Assembly: GCF_041222825.1 (NCBI RefSeq)
Contig: NZ_CP139482.1
Span: 1,333,001-1,397,000, forward strand
From: Candidatus Thalassolituus haligoni
GTDB taxonomy: Bacteria > Pseudomonadota > Gammaproteobacteria > Pseudomonadales > Oceanobacteraceae
Direction: 5' to 3'
Length of the DNA: 64,000 nt
This document shows positions 14,297-22,887 of the stretch, piece after piece. The notes beneath the pieces are model-generated. The model saw only the letters and a program-made list of their open reading frames with translations. It was not told where the DNA came from and did no database searches. The position numbers and the translations under genes were made by a program. Position 1 is the stretch's first letter. Each line of letters starts with the position of its first letter.

Positions 14297-17200
14297 ATGC
14301 CCCAAATTATTAATACCAACATCGCGTCCTTGAATGCCCAGCGCAACCTGGACAAGTCACAGTCCGCGAATCAGCAGGCTCTGGAGCGTCTGTCTTCGGG
14401 TCTTCGCATTAACAGTGCGAAAGATGATGCGGCCGGTTTGGCCATTTCTACCCGTTTTACTTCCCAGATCAAGGGTCTGGGAGTGGCGGTTCGTAACGCC
14501 GGTGATGGTATCGCCCTGGCCCAGACCGCAGAAGGTGCGTTGGGTTCGGTGAACGAAAACCTGCAGCGTATTCGTGAATTGGCGGTTCAGTCGGCCAACT
14601 CGACCAACTCCGATGTCGATCGTGAGGCGTTGCAGGCAGAAGTGGATCAGCTGGTGGCGGAAATTACCCGTACTTCGGAAGAAACCGATTTTAACGGTCG
14701 TAAACTGCTGGATGGTTCTTTTTCTGCGACCTTCCAGATTGGTGCCAATGCCGGTCAAACGGTGGATGTTTCGATTGCTGAACTGACCGCCGACAAGCTC
14801 GGTGTGGGTCAGGCTAATGGCGTTAGCGCTCTGGGTAATGAAAACGGCTTGCGCAGCGGCGATCTGATTATTAATGGTACTGCGATTGATCCTTCCCGCA
14901 GCGGTGATGACACTTCGTCTGTGTCGGGTCGTGAAGCGTCGGCGATTGCCAAAGTGGCCGCCATCAATGCCAAGTCGGATGAAACCGGTGTCACGGCTGA
15001 AGTGAACACTAACGTGGCGTCTGGCAGTGAGATGGTGGCGGGTCAGACCTCCGGTACCATGACGCTGAATGGCGTGGATATCAGTTTGGCAACGGGTGGG
15101 CTGGACACCTCTGCCGACCGTGATTCAGTGATTTCTTCCATTAACGCCAAGTCTGACCAGACCGGTGTGGTGGCTACGGACGGTGGTGATGGCGGCGGTG
15201 TGACGCTGGAGGCGAAAGATGGCCGTAATATCACGGTGGATCTGGGCACTTCCGGTAACCTGACCGAAGCAGCGACTGGTCTCTCCAGTGGCACCAGCTA
15301 CGGTGGTTTCACGCTGATTTCTCAGGATGGGTCTGATATCGAAGTTGAAGGTGGTCAGGGCACTGGCACCGGCGATATTCGTAACTCGGGTCTGACGGCG
15401 GGCACTTACTCCGGCCGTGCGGCTGCGATTACCAGTACGGTGACTACGTCGTCTATCTCGTCTGCTGAGTCAGCCGCTACCTTTACGACGGCGGATATGT
15501 CAATTGCCGCTGGTACGGCTGTTAATGCAACCAACAATACGTTTGAACTCAACGTCAATAACTCTGGGTTCCAGACCCTGACGCTGGATTCTACCTACGA
15601 TCCTTCTGCCAATGGTGGCACGGGCAGTGTCGGCACGTATGACAATGCCGAAGACCTGGCTTTGCACATCAATAATGCCATTGCCAACGACGCCAACTTC
15701 CAGGATGCCGATGGTAATGCCCTGGTCGCCGCGTCTGCTAATGATGATGGCAGCCTGACGTTCACCACGACCGAAGTAGGGGCGGATGCCAATGTCGTTG
15801 CTCGCTCTGGCAGCGCCAATATGGATATTGCCACTGCGACATCGGAAACGTCTGGTACCGATGGCGGCAATTATGCCCAAAGCAAGATGGATTTTATTTT
15901 TGACGGCGTGAACTCTATTGCTGGCGGTAATACCGTACGTCTGGGCCTGACTGGTTCCGGTACCGGTTCGGTTGCGGCGGCTGCGGGTACTGATCTGACG
16001 CTTTCGGCAGGCACTTATACAACCGCCCAATCGTTTGCTGACGAATTGAACAACCAGATTGCGGGTAACGCATCACTGGCGGGCAAGGTTGAAGCCGCTG
16101 TTTCTGAGGATGGCAAATCCGTACTGCTGAACTCGGTACTGGCAGATACCGGCACCAACTCCATTACCGCTATCGATGTGGATGCAGCATCCACAACCGT
16201 GACCACGCTGGTGAATGAAAACGTTGAGCATCTGGCCAACGGCGATGCGGTGATTACCGACGTTGCGGCCTTTAATACCGCGACTGCGGGTGCGGCCGAT
16301 ACGATCGGCGTTAACGTTGATGGCGCTGGCTTGCAAGACCTCGACCTGTCTACTGCGACGGGCGGTATCGCGGCTATCACTGATGCCGATACCTTGGCAG
16401 CAGCGATTAATGAAGTCGCAGCCAACTCCCTGTCAGGCGCGGGTATTACCGCTACCGTGACCGGTGGTCAGGTGGTGATTTCTTCCAACAGTGGTGGCAG
16501 TGTGGAAATCGGCGCTGCCGCGACACCGGCTGAAACCGTGGGTGGCGCTGCGGCGGCTATTTCCGATACCACTCAGGCGGATGTTGTGGTCACGGCAGAA
16601 GCCGGTACAGCAACAACCGGTAGCTTTAATGTCGATGCTGACGGTAATTTCCTCTCGGGTGACCCGGATGGTGCTGGCACCGATTATGACGCGTCGGCTG
16701 CTCCGTTGGTGGTCTCCGCCGGTGAAAATGACACGTTCTCGGTGGCGATTGATGGCGCTGCGGCGCAGGACGTCACCATTGCAGCGGGCAGCTATAACAG
16801 TTTGAGTGAGCTGGCGACGGCCATTGACTCCGGCTATGCCGATGCGGCCAGCACGATTGAAGTGGCAGATCTGAGCGGTACGGTTGCCAGTGATTATGAC
16901 TTTGCGACCGGTGGTGCAACCGATGACCTGGCGATTGCTATCAGCCTGGATGGCGGTGCTGCCCAGACCATTACGATCAATAGCGATCATGAAGGCGCTG
17001 ATGTTGCAGAATCCCAGGCCAACTTGCTGACCGATCTGCAAAGCCAGCTGGATACCGCGTTTGGTACTGGCAAGGTGCTGGCAGAAATCAACAACGACAA
17101 GTTGGAAATCAGTCGTGTGGGTGGCCAGGATGCCGGTAGTGTTGCTCTGACCATTGCCGACACCGGGGTGGGTGACGCTGGTGCGATTACCACAACGGCT

Positions 17201-18382
17201 TCGGGTACTACAGTACCGGCGATGACAGTGGGTGTATCGGCAGACAATAGCAGCCTGGTGTTCACCTCTGGTAGTACTGGTACCAGTTCCGAAGTGGATG
17301 TCACTAACGGCACGTTTGCTATCGAAGGTGGTTTTGTCTCTGGTAGTGAAGTCACCCAGGCGGTGACGCCAAACGCTATGGAAAACGGCGATCTGGTGAT
17401 TAACGGTACGTCTATTCAGGGTGCCAATGCCAGGGATGATACTGCCTCCGATACTGTCGCCTTGACCAGTGATGCCGCTGCCGGTGGTATCGCCGTAGCC
17501 GCTGCGATCAACAAGTCGAGCGCAGAAACCGGGGTGACCGCTGAAGTGAATGCCACCACGATGAATGGTGGTGGTGATACCAGTCTGCTGGACAAAGCGG
17601 CTGCCGGATCGACCGGTACGGTGATGATCAATAACGTCGAAACCACGGCGATCAATCTGACCGGTGATGAAGGACGTGACCGTCAAACCGCAATCGATGC
17701 AATCAACTCGGTATCCGGTCAGACCGGTGTGATGGCGGAAGATAACGGTGAGTCGATCACCCTGACCGCTGCCGATGGCCGTAACATTTCGGTGGCCATC
17801 GACAACAAGGCATCAACCAATGCGGCGGCGGGTTTTGATTCCAGCAACTTTGGTAACGCCATTGGTTTAAGCGCCGATGAAGCCGGAGTGGGTGAAGCGG
17901 ATCTGTCGGGTACCTCCTCGACCTACGCGAATACCGCCGGCACGACCTATTCAACCGTAACGCTGACTTCGGCCAGTGCGATTGAAGTCAGTAATGGTGA
18001 GAACGGTGCTGATGAGCTGTCGGCTCTGGGCTTGCAAGCGGGCACGTACGGCGGTGGTGAAGATGGCCAGTATCTGAAAGATATCGACATCTCGACCTTC
18101 GAAGGCGCTCAGTCGGCGATCAAGTCAGTCGACAATGCGATCGAACAGGTGGCTTCCCAGCGTGCCGATCTCGGTGCGATCCAGAACCGTCTGGAATCCA
18201 CCGTGAGTAACTTGCAAGTGACCTCGGAAAACCTGAATGCGGCCAACTCTCGGATTCAGGATGCAGACTTTGCAGCAGAAACAGCCGAGATGTCTCGTAC
18301 CCAGGTGTTGCAGCAGGCAGGTATTTCCGTTCTGGCTCAGGCAAACGCTGCAGGTCAGCAAGTTCTGTCTCTGCTGGGTTAA
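14297..18382 (+). CDS. fliC: Giant flagellin
   Basis: Filament protein of 1361 residues, about three times the usual length. Residues 1-170 are a standard D0/D1 start ([54 protein letters not shown]). Residues about 1262-1361 are the matching C-terminal D1/D0 ([39 protein letters not shown]). Between them is a Thr/Ala/Gly/Asp-rich, Cys-free beta insert. Two related hook-IN-like blocks flank it (about 186-375 and 1029-1255, each with GDL-INGT and INxxSxxTGV motifs), with several modules of the form F.V.VDG...AGxY...LA..I in the middle (400-1000). Ribosome site AGGAGA is at 14285-14290. Export via FliS is expected, but no fliS is nearby. The frame is uninterrupted, so this is not a pseudogene. 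Confidence 0.96.
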   Translation: [1361 protein letters not shown]

Positions 18383-18443
18383 CCCACAGACGTGGTGGCC
18401 TGACGGCCACCACTGATCGTTTCAAGACCGTGAGGTGAACCAC

Positions 18444-18824
18444 ATGAGCGACATTAACGTGAATTCAACCACCAGAATCCCTGCCAACGTTGCCACCATG
18501 TATCGTGACAACAACGGCCAGAGTCCACTGGGTACAACCGGAACCGGCAAAGACTTGCCAGCCGCTGGCAACCAGGGGCAGTCAAGCGCCGTTCCTGACC
18601 AGCAGCAGGTGCAGGAAGCCATCTCTCGTATTAACGAATACGTGCAGCAATCGGAACGGACACTGGACTTTCAACTGGATGAAAGCAGCGGCGAGACTAT
18701 TATTCGGGTCTACGACAAGCAGTCCGAAGAACTGATTCGCCAGATTCCCAGTGAACTGGCCCTTGAACTGGCGCAAAAATTGAATGATGAGGAACCATCG
18801 TTATTGTTCAGTGCCCAGGTCTAG
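18444..18824 (+). CDS. flaG: FlaG family protein
   Basis: Small flagellar protein of 126 residues. The C-terminal FlaG domain is clear (ISRINEYVQQSERTLDFQLD; TIIRVYDKQSEELIRQIPSE). The N-terminal third is low-complexity and probably disordered. FlaG affects filament length in Pseudomonas and Vibrio relatives; the biochemical role is not settled. ATG at 18444 is chosen over an upstream GTG because GAGGTG sits six bases before it. It lies 61 bases after flagellin and is separated from fliD by a terminator-like hairpin. Confidence 0.93.
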   Translation: MSDINVNSTTRIPANVATMYRDNNGQSPLGTTGTGKDLPAAGNQGQSSAVPDQQQVQEAISRINEYVQQSERTLDFQLDESSGETIIRVYDKQSEELIRQIPSELALELAQKLNDEEPSLLFSAQV

Positions 18825-18861
18825 GCGACAAACAGGATCCGGGATTTCCCGGCTCAAGAAA

Positions 18862-18899
18862 AACCCGTACTGACCGATAACGTCAGTGTGGGTTTTTTT
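18862..18899 (+). terminator. Rho-independent terminator between flaG and fliD
   Basis: Stem AACCCGTACTGAC (18862-18874) with GTCAGTGTGGGTT (18882-18894), two G-U pairs, followed by seven T. It would end the flagellin-flaG transcript, so fliD probably depends on read-through or its own promoter. Confidence 0.88.
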
Positions 18900-18933
18900 A
18901 TGAGTGGTCGAATATGGCCAGCGGGAGTTACTG

Positions 18934-21900
18934 ATGGCATCTATTGAGTCGCTGGGCCTGGGATCTGGCGTGTTGACCACCGAGCTGGTGGAAAACATTA
19001 TCAATGCCGAGCGCGAGGCCTCGGATCTGAGGCTGGATTCAAAACAGCAGTTGGTAGAAGCTAAAATTACCGCTTATGGCGAAATACAGTCGCAGCTTTC
19101 AACGCTCGATTCCGCTGTGAGCAAGCTGGCCAGTCCGTCGTTGGCGAATGCCACTGTGGCGACGTCTTCCAACGAGGAGATTCTTACCGCGACCACTTCC
19201 AGCGTGGCCGAACCTGGTAGCTATACCATTGAGGTACTCAATACCGCCAGAGCTCATTCTCTGGCCAGTGACCGTTATACCAGTTTTGATGAAATCGTTG
19301 GCACTGGCAAACTGGTCTTCACCTTTGGTGAAAACAACTACGACACCGATGGCAACCTGACCGGACAGGATGTGAACCCGGACAAACCCGGTACTACCAT
19401 TTCGATCGACAATTCCAATCGCACCCTGAGTGGCATTCGTGATGCCATTAACAGCGCCGATATGGGTGTGACGGCATCTATTATCAACGACGGCAGTGGT
19501 TACCGCCTGCTGATGACCTCGGCCGACACCGGTAAAGAGCAAGCCATGCGGATTCAAGCGCTGGACAGCTCCGGGGCCGAGTTAACCACAGGCTTGTCGG
19601 CGTTGGCGTTTAATGCTTCCCAGAGCGCCTATTCGTCCCTGGAAGAAACCAGCACCGGACAAGACGCCCAGCTACGGGTCAATGGCCTGAATATTACCCG
19701 CAGCAGCAACGCCGTGGATGAAGTGGTGAAGGGCGTTACGCTGAATCTGCAAAATGCCGATGTCGGCAATACGGTGACGGTGACGGTGGCCGCAGATGTG
19801 GAGCAGCTATCAGAAAACCTTCAGGCATTTGTCGATGCCTATAATACCTTCAAGCAGTTCAGCGACGAGCTCAGCACCTACGATTCGGCCAACGAACAGG
19901 CCGGGTTGTTGCTGGGAGACTCCACCATACGCTCGATCCAGTATCAGGTACGGTCACTGATCAGCCAGCCGATTGCCGGGTTGTCGGGCTCTGCTTTCCG
20001 CTCGTTGACGGAACTCGGGGTGAATACCGATCAGAACAACGATTATTTGCTCTATTTTGATCAGACTGCGTTTAACGAGGCGATCACGTCCGACCGCAGT
20101 GCCGTTGCCAGTATTCTGGCCAAGTCGGGTCTGACCACCGACAGTCAGGTAACTTACGTCAACGACTCGATCAATACTCAACCAGGCAGCTACGATGTCC
20201 ATGTCACCCAGCTGGCCACCCAGGCAATGTATCAGGGCGGCCGTGTCGCGGGTCTGGATTTCAGTGCTGCGGTGTCGATTGATGACAGCAACGACAACTT
20301 CACCATTCGGGTGAACGGCACCATGGCCCAGGTGCAACTGACCCATGGCAGCTACGACAGTGGCGACGCCCTGGCAAAAGAGCTGGCATTACAAATTAAC
20401 AGCGCAGAAAACATCGCCAACAGCGGCTTTTCTGTCTCTGTGGATCACAATGCCAGCGATCCGTCGTTCAGTATTACCTCCAACAAATATGGCGCGTCGT
20501 CCCAGGTGTATTTCACCAGTGTGGATAACAACACTGCCAATACACTCGGCTTTAATACCCTGAATGCCGGTACTTACAAAGGCGTTGAGCTGACGACCCT
20601 GAATGCCTCGGCCTTTAATGGTCGCGGTGCTTCGACATTGGCGGGCAATCGTCCGGTGGCAGACAACAATGGTATTGATTTCGCCAGCAGCAATGCGACT
20701 TTTTCGTTGGCGCTGGAGGGTGCCGCAGCGGTAGCGATTACTGTTAGCCAGTCGGCGTCCGGCAAAGATCTGAACAGCGACGGCGTCTATGGTGACCGTC
20801 AGGACACCTTGCAGGCGATTCAGAGTGCTATCGACAGTTCTGCCCTGAGTGGCCAGGTGACCGCCGCATTTGACGACAGTGGTTATCTGGCTTTTACCAC
20901 CAGTGCTACCGGCAGCAGCCATTCGATCGAAATTACGGCGGTGGGCAGTAACAGCTCGGATACGGTATTGGGCTTGAGTGCCGCCGATGGTGTGCAAAGC
21001 AACGGCAAAAATCCGGGTGTGACGTTTGCCGAGCCGGTGGACTTCCGGGTCAAGGTGAACGATACCCTTGGCGATACATTGGTCAGTGTACCGGCAGGCA
21101 CTTACCTGAACGGCGAGGATCTGGCCGCGCAAGTACAGGCCAGCATCAACAGCAGTGTGAGTGCCGACACCAATCTGTCGGCTCTGGTCAGCGGAGCCGA
21201 CACCAGCACCGGTAGCCGGGATATCAGCAGCGTGATTGATTTTGCCGCTGCGGCGTCTGGTTTTCGTCTTAATGTGGCGGGTAATGAGCAGGAGATTATC
21301 GTTAACAGCAGCAGTGGCGATAATCTGGCGGATATCCAGATGGCGCTGGATACCGCCTATGGTAGCGGTGTGGTCAGCGCCAGCCTCGATGGCAGCGGGC
21401 TGAAGCTGGTTACCGTTGTTGCTGGTCATGAGCAGTATCTGGAAGTCATGACCGATGGCCGGGGAGCACAGACCTCTGCCTTTGCCGATATCAGCAGCGG
21501 CATTGATTTCAGTGCCAGTAACGCCAGTTTTACCCTTACCGTCGATGGTACCGAGCTCCAGGTTAATGTGACGGAAGACGGCACTGGCGGCAGTAACGAC
21601 TCCGCTTCCAATCTGGCCGTCATTCAACAGGCGGTAGACGAAGCGCTGGTGGATTCAGGCACTTTGGCAGCAGGGGATGTACAGGCAAAGGTGAATGACA
21701 GTGGCCAGCTTTACTTTGAGACCGCCAGTAAAAATGGCATCAAAACAGCGGCGACTTTTGGGGCCAGTGCCAGTATTCAGGTTTCTAACCTCAGTGGTAG
21801 TGCGGCAACCACTCTGGGTATGAGCGATGAAACCTCGAATACCGGCTACGACGGTATGGGCCTGACGGCAGGTGAGCGCCGTTTCGGGTTTGATCTGGAT

Positions 21901-22887
21901 ACCTCGGTCGAGTATCGCTACGACGCTGACAACGAGCTGGGATCATTACACATTACCATTGGCGGGCAGGGCACAGCGATTGGCTTTACTGATCTGGACA
22001 GCACTGCGATTTCGTTCCTCGGCTTGCAGGACGTCAGCCTGTATGCCGAAGCGATTCCGGTCGGTAAAGACATTGCTGGCACGATTAATGGCGTAGAAGC
22101 AACAGGCTCCGGGCAATTTCTCAAGGCGGTGGATGGCAATACCCCGGCCAAACCGGGTTACTACATTGGCAGCCAGGCGGCCGATTTTTCCTCGCCGGTG
22201 ACACTCGATGACAGTAATAACCGCTTCAGCATCAATGTTGATGGTGTGGAAGCCGAAGTGGCCCTGGCTCAACCAGCGACTTACATCAGCGGTTCGGCGC
22301 TGGCCAGCGCGGTGCAAACGGCGATCAATGGCACCGATGCCTTCAAGAGTGCCGATATCAGCGTCAATGTTGAATACACCGGCGATGCCACTTCATTTGC
22401 CTACGGCAAGTTGGGCATTGTGTCCAGCAGCAGCGGCAAGGATTCCCAGGTCACCATGACCAGTGTCAGCAGCGCCGCAACGGCGGTCTTCGGTTTTGTT
22501 AAAGGCAAGGGTGACGGCGAGGCAGGTACCGACGCCCAGGGGAATGTGGATGATGCATCCGGCCTGCGGTTAAAAATCACTGGCGGTGAGATCGGCGCTC
22601 GCGGCACAGTGACTTATGTGTCCGGCTTTGCCGACCAGTTGTCTGACCTGCTCGACTCCGTTTTGACCGGCAGCAACAGCGTCATCAAAAACAAGCTGGC
22701 ATCGCTGGATGGTGATCAGGAAGCCATCGACCTGCAGCGGGAAAAACTGGATGCCCGGATTGCCGCTCAGGAAGCGCGATTAAAATCCCAGTTTTTATAT
22801 AATGACTCGATTATTCAGACCCTTAACACCACGCTCGACTACATTCAGCAGCAGTTTGACGCGCTGAACAATGCCAACAGCAAGTAG
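18934..22887 (+). CDS. fliD: Giant flagellar filament cap protein FliD
   Basis: Capping protein of 1317 residues, about two to three times the usual size; it sits at the filament tip and promotes flagellin insertion. FliD_N is at residues 1-100 (SLGLGSGVLTTELVENIINA) and a hook-IN-like segment at about 155-205. FliD_C begins near 240 (AQLRVNGLNITRSSNAV; LQAFVDAYNTF) and is interrupted. It resumes at about 1205-1300 (YVSGFADQLSDLLDSVLTG) with the terminal coiled coil (IDLQREKLDARIAAQEARL). Between about 440 and 1190 lie six recognisable beta modules starting near 441, 581, 699, 768, 857 and 1084. Each has a DF..(S/A)..F.(L/I).V.G core, and several end in LG(F/M/L). The ATG at 18934 follows GGAG and gives the conserved MASIESLGLGSG. 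No fliS/fliT follows. Confidence 0.94.
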   Translation: MASIESLGLGSGVLTTELVENIINAEREASDLRLDSKQQLVEAKITAYGEIQSQLSTLDSAVSKLASPSLANATVATSSNEEILTATTSSVAEPGSYTIEVLNTARAHSLASDRYTSFDEIVGTGKLVFTFGENNYDTDGNLTGQDVNPDKPGTTISIDNSNRTLSGIRDAINSADMGVTASIINDGSGYRLLMTSADTGKEQAMRIQALDSSGAELTTGLSALAFNASQSAYSSLEETSTGQDAQLRVNGLNITRSSNAVDEVVKGVTLNLQNADVGNTVTVTVAADVEQLSENLQAFVDAYNTFKQFSDELSTYDSANEQAGLLLGDSTIRSIQYQVRSLISQPIAGLSGSAFRSLTELGVNTDQNNDYLLYFDQTAFNEAITSDRSAVASILAKSGLTTDSQVTYVNDSINTQPGSYDVHVTQLATQAMYQGGRVAGLDFSAAVSIDDSNDNFTIRVNGTMAQVQLTHGSYDSGDALAKELALQINSAENIANSGFSVSVDHNASDPSFSITSNKYGASSQVYFTSVDNNTANTLGFNTLNAGTYKGVELTTLNASAFNGRGASTLAGNRPVADNNGIDFASSNATFSLALEGAAAVAITVSQSASGKDLNSDGVYGDRQDTLQAIQSAIDSSALSGQVTAAFDDSGYLAFTTSATGSSHSIEITAVGSNSSDTVLGLSAADGVQSNGKNPGVTFAEPVDFRVKVNDTLGDTLVSVPAGTYLNGEDLAAQVQASINSSVSADTNLSALVSGADTSTGSRDISSVIDFAAAASGFRLNVAGNEQEIIVNSSSGDNLADIQMALDTAYGSGVVSASLDGSGLKLVTVVAGHEQYLEVMTDGRGAQTSAFADISSGIDFSASNASFTLTVDGTELQVNVTEDGTGGSNDSASNLAVIQQAVDEALVDSGTLAAGDVQAKVNDSGQLYFETASKNGIKTAATFGASASIQVSNLSGSAATTLGMSDETSNTGYDGMGLTAGERRFGFDLDTSVEYRYDADNELGSLHITIGGQGTAIGFTDLDSTAISFLGLQDVSLYAEAIPVGKDIAGTINGVEATGSGQFLKAVDGNTPAKPGYYIGSQAADFSSPVTLDDSNNRFSINVDGVEAEVALAQPATYISGSALASAVQTAINGTDAFKSADISVNVEYTGDATSFAYGKLGIVSSSSGKDSQVTMTSVSSAATAVFGFVKGKGDGEAGTDAQGNVDDASGLRLKITGGEIGARGTVTYVSGFADQLSDLLDSVLTGSNSVIKNKLASLDGDQEAIDLQREKLDARIAAQEARLKSQFLYNDSIIQTLNTTLDYIQQQFDALNNANSK

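What the first reader, a model, noticed from the sequence alone, without database searches (positions are those of the whole stretch)
14297..22887. Flagellin and its cap are both giant and share a similar beta module
The flagellin (1361 residues) and FliD (1317) are each two to three times normal size. Their inserts contain the same kind of ~100-residue module, written as F.(V/L).V(D/N)G, a short strand, (A/H)GxYxS(G/L)..LA..(I/L). Examples are FSVAIDGAAAQDVTIAAGSY in flagellin, and FTIRVNGTMAQVQLTHGSYD and FSINVDGVEAEVALAQPATY in FliD. This suggests that filament surface and tip grew together, perhaps by exchange of domains, so that the cap still fits or decorates the thick filament.
Basis: partly seen in the sequence, partly recalled or inferred. 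Interest (0 to 1): 0.8.

Follow-up and report, generated by a model that had tools for sequence, protein, structure and literature searches.

The report
Oversized flagellum sharing one protein module

Summary
The window (an Oceanobacter) encodes a 1361-aa flagellin and a 1317-aa FliD whose inserts share a homologous module of about 100 residues; reversed and shuffled controls are clean. In 50 genomes with the giant cap, FliD is fixed (1313.5±8 aa) while flagellin runs 728-1357 aa, uncorrelated after tree correction (r=0.05). Modules mostly group by protein: 36 of 44 flagellin modules are closer to another genome's flagellin than to any FliD.

The search led outside the coordinates. The hook protein FlgE (1201 aa) carries the same modules and FlgK (992 aa) is large too. 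Across the order, hook, FlgK and cap lengths move together, flagellin only loosely, though few events carry this. FliD's insert comes in discrete sizes with surviving intermediates, and in both proteins a module appears split by a nested one. Giant flagellins of this clade, and inserts in FliD and hook proteins elsewhere, are published; the shared module was not found in eight searches. No structure was obtained.

The parts
14297..18382 (+). giant flagellin gene (1361 aa)
   Evidence: Pfam Flagellin_N 5-142 and Flagellin_C 1275-1360
14729..15463 (+). flagellin DE1 region (about residues 145-389)
   Evidence: 42-56% identity in relatives where it aligns as a separate piece (40 best listed); name after Thomson 2018
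15464..17368 (+). flagellin DX insert (about residues 390-1024), string of FliD-D4-like modules, net charge -74
15509..15841 (+). DX module A (about residues 405-515)
   Evidence: HMM i-E 2.2e-4; hhalign probability 91.9
15974..16231 (+). DX module B (about residues 560-645)
   Evidence: HMM i-E 9e-5; hhalign probability 82-85 in windows starting at 503-557
16691..16867 (+). DX module C, first half (residues 799-857)
   Evidence: 1.1e-15 with a model of three relatives in which the module is uninterrupted
16904..17200 (+). DX module D (about residues 870-968), nested inside module C; absent from Thalassolituus marinus, Oleispira and Natronospirillum
   Evidence: hhalign probability 92.4 to FliD M2; alignment
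17234..17335 (+). DX module C, second half (about residues 980-1013)
   Evidence: match 932-1013 at 3.3e-3, which also takes in part of module D; cleaner in O. mangrovi (958-999, 4.7e-5)
17369..18118 (+). flagellin DE2 region
18435..18824 (+). flaG
   Evidence: PF03646, 5.5e-19
18934..22887 (+). giant fliD (1317 aa)
   Evidence: Pfam FliD_N 11-108, FliD_C 242-404
20146..22617 (+). FliD insert at the D4 site (residues 405-1228, 824 aa)
20254..20577 (+). FliD module M1, groups with the single D4 module of ordinary ~680-aa FliDs
20680..20991 (+). FliD module M2, with a DxNxDG motif
21001..21168 (+). FliD module M3, first half
   Evidence: weak in the window itself (i-E 0.75), below 1e-3 in L006, L011 and others; contiguous in Pseudohongiella-type FliDs
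21217..21483 (+). FliD module M3b, nested in M3
21517..21828 (+). FliD module M4, nested in M3
21895..22029 (+). FliD module M3, second half (residues 988-1032)
   Evidence: i-E 4.3e-4
22177..22503 (+). FliD module M5, nested in the terminal GTINGVEATGSGQ...GLRLKITGG segment

Best explanation
This is an old, clade-wide enlargement of the extracellular flagellar parts. Hook (FlgE), FlgK, cap (FliD) and flagellin keep ordinary cores and carry very large inserts. In FlgE, FliD and some flagellins the inserts hold strings of one module of about 100 residues (beta-beta-alpha-beta-beta topology inferred from sequence only) that resembles the Flagellin_IN motif. New copies were spliced into loops of existing domains, sometimes inside an older module. 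Both chain ends therefore stay in the core, so export and packing can go on unchanged. FliD reached its size in steps (none, one, two, three, then about six modules at the D4 site) and then froze, as did FlgE and FlgK in this family. The flagellin insert kept changing on its own by module gain, loss or replacement. Shown: sizes, module homology, insert positions, size classes, fixed cap against free flagellin. Supported but not proved: the split, nested modules. Inferred: that the inserts stick outward and decorate cap, hook and filament with an acidic coat, for surface contact or protection, rather than adjusting the cap to the filament's width.
For: Module homology with clean controls. Hook modules in 20 of 21 FlgE sequences, 0 reversed or shuffled hits with the M1, M2, M3 and M5 models. 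FliD insert lengths fall into classes in 156 distinct FliDs, with intermediates of 780, 828 and 939 aa aligned and one of 1163 aa. M1 is the widespread single D4 module: 32 of 185 gammaproteobacterial genomes, 29 of them in frames of 655-702 aa. Split modules: FliD M3 680-745 | 988-1032, flagellin 799-857 | about 980-1013. FlgE 1193-1259 aa in 35 of 39 family genomes with a match, the other four short frames; FlgK 995-1002 in 9 of 9 family genomes sampled. Fixed FliD against variable flagellin. Modules mostly group by protein.
Against: No structure could be predicted, so topology and orientation are inferred. FlgK carries no detectable module, so the module does not explain all of the enlargement. 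Modules were found in only 23 of 156 flagellins, eight of them only by the N or M3b models; Thalassolituus maritimus, with a giant flagellin, is not among them. The M3b model gave one reversed-sequence hit at 6.9e-5. Seven of 44 flagellin modules fit FliD modules better than other flagellins. In the window the first half of M3 is weak (i-E 0.75), and of 14 giant FliDs tested 10 show both halves at i-E below 1, some with the first half running on into M3b. Size correlations across the order rest on few large contrasts and independent-pair tests were too small to decide. Flagellin length is that of the gene nearest fliD; 21 of 44 family genomes also carry a second flagellin-type gene of 262-296 aa.
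Confidence: 0.7

Rival explanations
1. Cap and filament grew together and exchanged domains so that the cap fits the thick filament.
For: Same module in both proteins; loose length correlation across the order (PIC r 0.27, n 156; r 0.52 between FliD D4 and flagellin outer region among the 106 non-giants). Seven of 44 flagellin modules fit FliD best, and the own FliD is the best FliD in 3 of 28 comparisons.
Against: No correlation within 50 giant-FliD genomes; 36 of 44 flagellin modules are closer to other flagellins and modules cluster by protein on the tree; no long plus-strand DNA match between fliC and fliD (best 20 bases); correlation fades without the top contrasts; D4 distant from the cap cavity in C. 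jejuni (PMC12221982, passages).
Confidence: 0.15
2. Physical matching of the scaffold: hook, FlgK and cap were enlarged together in an ancestor with a thick filament, and flagellin later varied within the limits they set.
For: FlgK~FlgE PIC r 0.73 (n 88), FlgE~FliD 0.55 (n 117), FlgK~FliD 0.40 (n 94); of 42 genomes with FlgE>=900 aa 41 have FliD>=900, and of 44 with FliD>=900 41 have FlgE>=900. In C. jejuni a D4 domain sits next to FlgL at the junction (PMC12221982, passages).
Against: Few independent events (FlgE>=900 changes 3 times on the tree); without the five strongest contrasts the three r values are 0.35, 0.15 and 0.11; FlgL of this genome stays ordinary (412 aa); exceptions such as flagellin 1191-1198 with FliD 938.
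Confidence: 0.3
3. The resemblance is not homology but shared composition of Ala/Ser/Thr/Asp-rich beta sequence.
For: Inserts are 45-53% A+S+T+G.
Against: Reversed and shuffled controls fail while the real order scores high (the one exception is the M3b model); DE1 and DE2, of the same composition, do not match, nor does the FliD D1 model.
Confidence: 0.04

Closest known systems
Giant flagellins of Oceanospirillales (Thomson et al. 2018, PMC6248924; sections 13 and 14 and passages seen)
   Same: Same clade (Thalassolituus maritimus DSM 24913, called Oleibacter marinus there, is locus L070); DE1-DX-DE2 layout; giant flagellin above 1000 aa.
   Different: Its text has no FliD (0 occurrences) and calls the DX insert probably de novo, with no hits outside Oceanospirillales flagellins; here the DX of this flagellin is built of modules homologous to FliD and FlgE modules.
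FliD D4 domain of Campylobacter jejuni (PMC7316729 and PMC12221982, passages)
   Same: Extra domain inserted within the D1 helix bundle of FliD; PMC7316729 says such insertions also occur in other FliDs, in flagellin and in hook proteins.
   Different: One domain there, about six modules here; the M1 profiles alone do not find the C. jejuni chains.
Flagellin-like fold of hook, cap and filament proteins (review PMC9254593, passages)
   Same: States that FlgE, FliD and FliC share domain organisation D0 to D3.
   Different: The shared module here lies in extra inserts, not in that common architecture, so far as sequence shows.
Flagellin_IN motif (Pfam PF07196)
   Same: Short motif of flagellins and FliD; weak match in 7 of 12 M2 and 2 of 19 M1 modules at E<=1.
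   Different: The modules are about twice as long; the window's better matches (flagellin 1033-1087, FliD 150-198) lie in DE2 and in D2-D3, not in the modules, and stay below Pfam's cut-off.
DUF3383 (PF11863)
   Same: 16 of 19 M1 modules match it at E<=1, best 4.4e-6; 14 of 19 match phage family phrog_19400 at E<=0.01.
   Different: The window's own M1 lists neither; tblastn of the window's M1 against 50,697 phage records found nothing at E<=0.01.

Membership tests
bacterial flagellin | N- and C-terminal flagellin helical regions | tested here: met
   PF00669 1.9e-46, PF00700 1.2e-27
FliD cap protein | FliD_N and FliD_C domains | tested here: met
   PF02465 1.2e-21, PF07195 1.5e-45
FliD cap protein | forms the cap oligomer at the filament tip | not testable with these tools
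   no structure or experiment
giant flagellin with tandem DE regions (Thomson 2018) | length above 1000 aa with two DE regions flanking a DX insert | tested here: met
   about residues 141-385 and 1022-1275 (numbered from residue 5) align to relatives; the second also to another flagellin's first region (row L186, 1004-1163 to 168-317)
giant flagellin with tandem DE regions (Thomson 2018) | filament at least 30 nm wide | not testable with these tools
   measured for two other species in that paper (section 13 read)
Flagellin_IN (PF07196) | score above Pfam's gathering cut-off | tested here: not met
   flagellin 15.8 and FliD 22.6 against 22.7 bits; window M2 12.1
FliD D4 domain as in C. [quoted passage not shown]
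   profile matches E. coli FliD up to about FliD residue 400, core resumes at about 1228; position within the bundle by analogy to PMC7316729
FliD D4 domain as in C. jejuni | sequence homology to the C. jejuni D4 | tested here: inconclusive
   6sih and 9gsx not listed for the M1 profiles at E<=10 and E<=1; with the whole FliD profile the match to 9gsx runs about 108 positions past D1
FlgE hook protein (L211:4247-7852) | rod N-terminus, D1, FlgE_D2 and C-terminal domains | tested here: met
   PF00460, PF22692, PF07559, PF06429

The most novel reading that the evidence does not exclude
A whole extracellular flagellum, from hook to cap, was scaled up as one unit in this lineage, largely by repeated nested insertion of a single module family, giving hook, filament and cap a common outer layer. 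The parts that mate with neighbours (hook, FlgK, cap) are locked in size, while the filament surface evolves freely.
Probability: 0.35. Interest if true: 0.78.

Novelty: new variant of a known kind. Interest (0 to 1): 0.58.

Why it matters
Giant flagellins were treated as a filament story. Here the hook, FlgK and cap of the same bacteria are giant too and fixed in size, which asks what sets the outer diameter of a flagellum and whether cap and hook must match it. The surviving series of FliD sizes gives a stepwise record of how an axial protein can gain domains without losing its core, and the nested insertions suggest a simple rule: new modules enter the loop of an old one. It also offers a source for a flagellin insert that was thought to be new, and a direct test with cultured strains.

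Tried and rejected
Length coupling of cap and filament: rejected inside the giant clade, loose outside it. Recent exchange between fliC and fliD: not supported, with the exceptions told above; on the tree the nearest FliD row to the window's module C is its own M5, at a long distance (2.2). Chance or composition: rejected by controls. DX as a horizontally moved cassette: open. Most of the window's DX is shared with Natronospirillum of another family and six relatives tested, three of them at 93-94% core identity, have no blastp match to it; but DX identity falls together with FliD identity (50, 54, 44, 36% against 70, 65, 55, 42%), so an old DX with repeated loss or replacement fits as well. 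A solved structure of the module: none found by sequence. A phage origin: weak Pfam and PHROG matches, no tblastn match. M3b as a search model for hooks: dropped after a reversed-sequence hit. The E-values of the uninterrupted module C in its three source species are self-matches and prove nothing.

Full report
What is there. The window lies in a 4.38-Mb genome; its closest named match is an uncultured Oceanobacter. fliC (14297-18382), flaG (18435-18824) and fliD (18934-22887) lie in line on the + strand. Flagellin has the normal ends and a middle of about 1,130 residues. FliD has D0-D3 (residues 1-404), an 824-residue insert (405-1228) and a normal C-terminal end. The insert begins where the match to E. 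coli FliD's D1 region stops, which by analogy is the place where C. jejuni FliD carries its D4 domain (PMC7316729, passages).

The shared module is real. From 55 distinct giant FliDs I cut the insert into modules and built HMMs. The M1, M2, M3 and M5 models each hit the window flagellin; no reversed or shuffled flagellin scored below i-E 0.1 with any model. Profile-profile scores were 41-67 for the matching pairs against at most 21.2 for shuffles and 17.2 for reversed profiles; M1 against DX module D scored only 10.6, and that module matches M2 instead. Scanning along the flagellin, strong matches fall only in the DX insert (about residues 390-1024), not in DE1 or DE2. Modules were found in 23 of 156 flagellins, eight of these only with the N or M3b models.

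How FliD grew. Among 156 distinct flagellin-FliD pairs, D4 inserts (rounded to 10) fall into classes: 0-10 (60 genomes), 80-130 (7), 190-210 (23), 300-330 (4), 450-460 (10), 680-690 (2) and 810-840 (50). The pairs come from 189 loci with both genes after removing 33 with a repeated FliD; 4 further loci lacked a usable FliD and 8 a flagellin. They are not a random sample, since searched with giant FliDs. An alignment of 12 FliDs suggests the steps: one module (M1, six sequences), M1+M3 (L061), M1+M5 (L060), M1+M3+M5 (L052), and in three giants also M2, M3b and M4. A model of M3 from nine Pseudohongiella-type FliDs, where it is contiguous, is met in the window by two pieces, model 4-73 at residues 680-745 (i-E 0.75) and 75-119 at 988-1032 (4.3e-4), with 242 residues between. 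Both pieces are below 1e-3 and cleanly split in L006 and L011; of 14 giants 10 show both pieces at i-E below 1, and in several the first runs on into M3b. M1 alone is the common D4 module: 32 of 185 sampled Gammaproteobacteria, frames of 655-702 aa in 29.

How flagellin grew. DE1 and DE2 align in the relatives listed. The window's DX is shared in full with Oceanobacter mangrovi, and except for the nested module with Natronospirillum operosum, Thalassolituus marinus and an Oleispira; six other relatives tested, O. kriegii among them, have no blastp match to it at 1e-3. Module C is uninterrupted in the last three; in the window and O. mangrovi its first half (1.1e-15, 8.9e-16) is followed by the nested module and then by a second piece (3.3e-3, 4.7e-5).

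Growing together? Within the family FliD frames are 1317-1355 aa in 37 of 39 genomes with a match, main flagellin frames 736-1371. In 50 giant-FliD genomes FliD is 1313.5±8 and flagellin (counted from residue 5) 1051±189, PIC r=0.05, p=0.71. Over all 156 pairs r=0.27, p=0.0006; in the 106 others flagellin outer length and D4 length give r=0.52. These rest on few events: D4 presence changes six times on the tree and the independent-pairs test cannot decide; without the five strongest contrasts the first r is 0.07.

Exchange? Of 44 flagellin modules, 36 have a better match in another genome's flagellin than in any FliD, 7 the reverse (in L112, L121, L006, L202, L207), 1 a tie; six of the 36 are the window's and its same-species copy's. 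The best FliD scores for the window's three modules are 18-23 bits, the own FliD 8-15; the same modules are 70%, 35% and 52% identical to those of O. mangrovi. The nested module of O. mangrovi fits its own FliD's M3b best (28.4 bits), so an old borrowing there is possible. A tree of 136 modules needs 5 changes between the two proteins against 35.4 in shuffles; with hook modules and without six long-branch rows, 10 against 46.8. Branch support is low, and near-copies inflate the contrast.

The hook and FlgK. The M1 profile found a third protein in this genome, FlgE (1201 aa, L211:4247-7852). Pfam confirms FlgE with an insert between about residues 139 and 915. With the M1, M2, M3 and M5 models 20 of 21 FlgE sequences carry modules at i-E below 0.01 and no reversed or shuffled copy does. 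FlgK has 992 aa and no detectable module; FlgL has 412 aa. In the family FlgE is 1193-1259 aa in 35 of 39 genomes with a match, the other four being short frames. In the second giant family (f6) FlgE is 1238-1593 (8 genomes) and FlgK 1005-1031 (8). Across the order: FlgK~FlgE r=0.73 (n=88), FlgE~FliD 0.55 (117), FlgK~FliD 0.40 (94), FlgK~flagellin 0.35 (94), FlgE~flagellin 0.22 (117); among 39 giants FlgE~flagellin is -0.02. Without the five strongest contrasts these become 0.35, 0.15, 0.11, 0.10 and 0.

Mechanism. The likeliest reading is outward decoration: both chain ends of each insert return to the core, the DX is very acidic (13% acidic, 1.3% basic residues, net -74) and D4 has net -59. 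In C. jejuni the D4 domains lie far from the cap cavity (PMC12221982, passages), and a role in heparin binding has been proposed (PMC7316729, passages). Thomson et al. report filaments at least 30 nm wide in two relatives (section 13). What the coat is for is not known; adhesion or protection from phages and predators are guesses.

Literature. Thomson 2018 (sections 13 and 14 and passages seen) describes DE and DX and calls DX probably de novo. PMC7316729 notes that domain insertion occurs in FliDs, flagellins and hook proteins (passages); PMC9254593 notes the common architecture of FlgE, FliD and FliC (passages); PMC7018530 ascribes flagellin middle-region diversity to horizontal transfer (passages). 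I saw no paper on giant FliD or FlgE in this clade, or on the module shared between flagellin, FliD and hook, in the listings of the eight searches; the library holds open-licence papers only. That FlgE is about 400 aa and FlgK about 550 aa in E. coli is recalled.

Noticed in passing
L211:4247-7852 (genome 1746246-1749851): The hook protein FlgE is 1201 aa and carries several copies of the same module; up to 1593 aa in a related family.
   Followed up: yes
L212:11980-14958: FlgK is 992 aa with a large insert that has no detectable relation to the module.
   Followed up: partly
relatives of the window's family: 21 of 44 family genomes have a second flagellin-type gene of 262-296 aa away from fliD, with no second clear FliD; the window's genome has none.
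   Followed up: no
L120:12797 onward: A Pseudomonadales MAG encodes a flagellin of 2154 aa.
   Followed up: no
window 20680-20991: FliD module M2 holds a DxNxDG-type motif, matched in 37 of 51 FliDs longer than 1280 aa, which could bind calcium.
   Followed up: partly
window 20248-20583: FliD module M1 of relatives matches Pfam DUF3383 (16 of 19) and phage family phrog_19400 (14 of 19), hinting that the module also occurs in phage proteins.
   Followed up: partly
genome 1259639-1259989: The only fliS found lies about 92 kb from fliD, not behind it.
   Followed up: no
L037 and L088: One relative has fliD in two overlapping frames, either a sequencing error or a broken cap gene.
   Followed up: no
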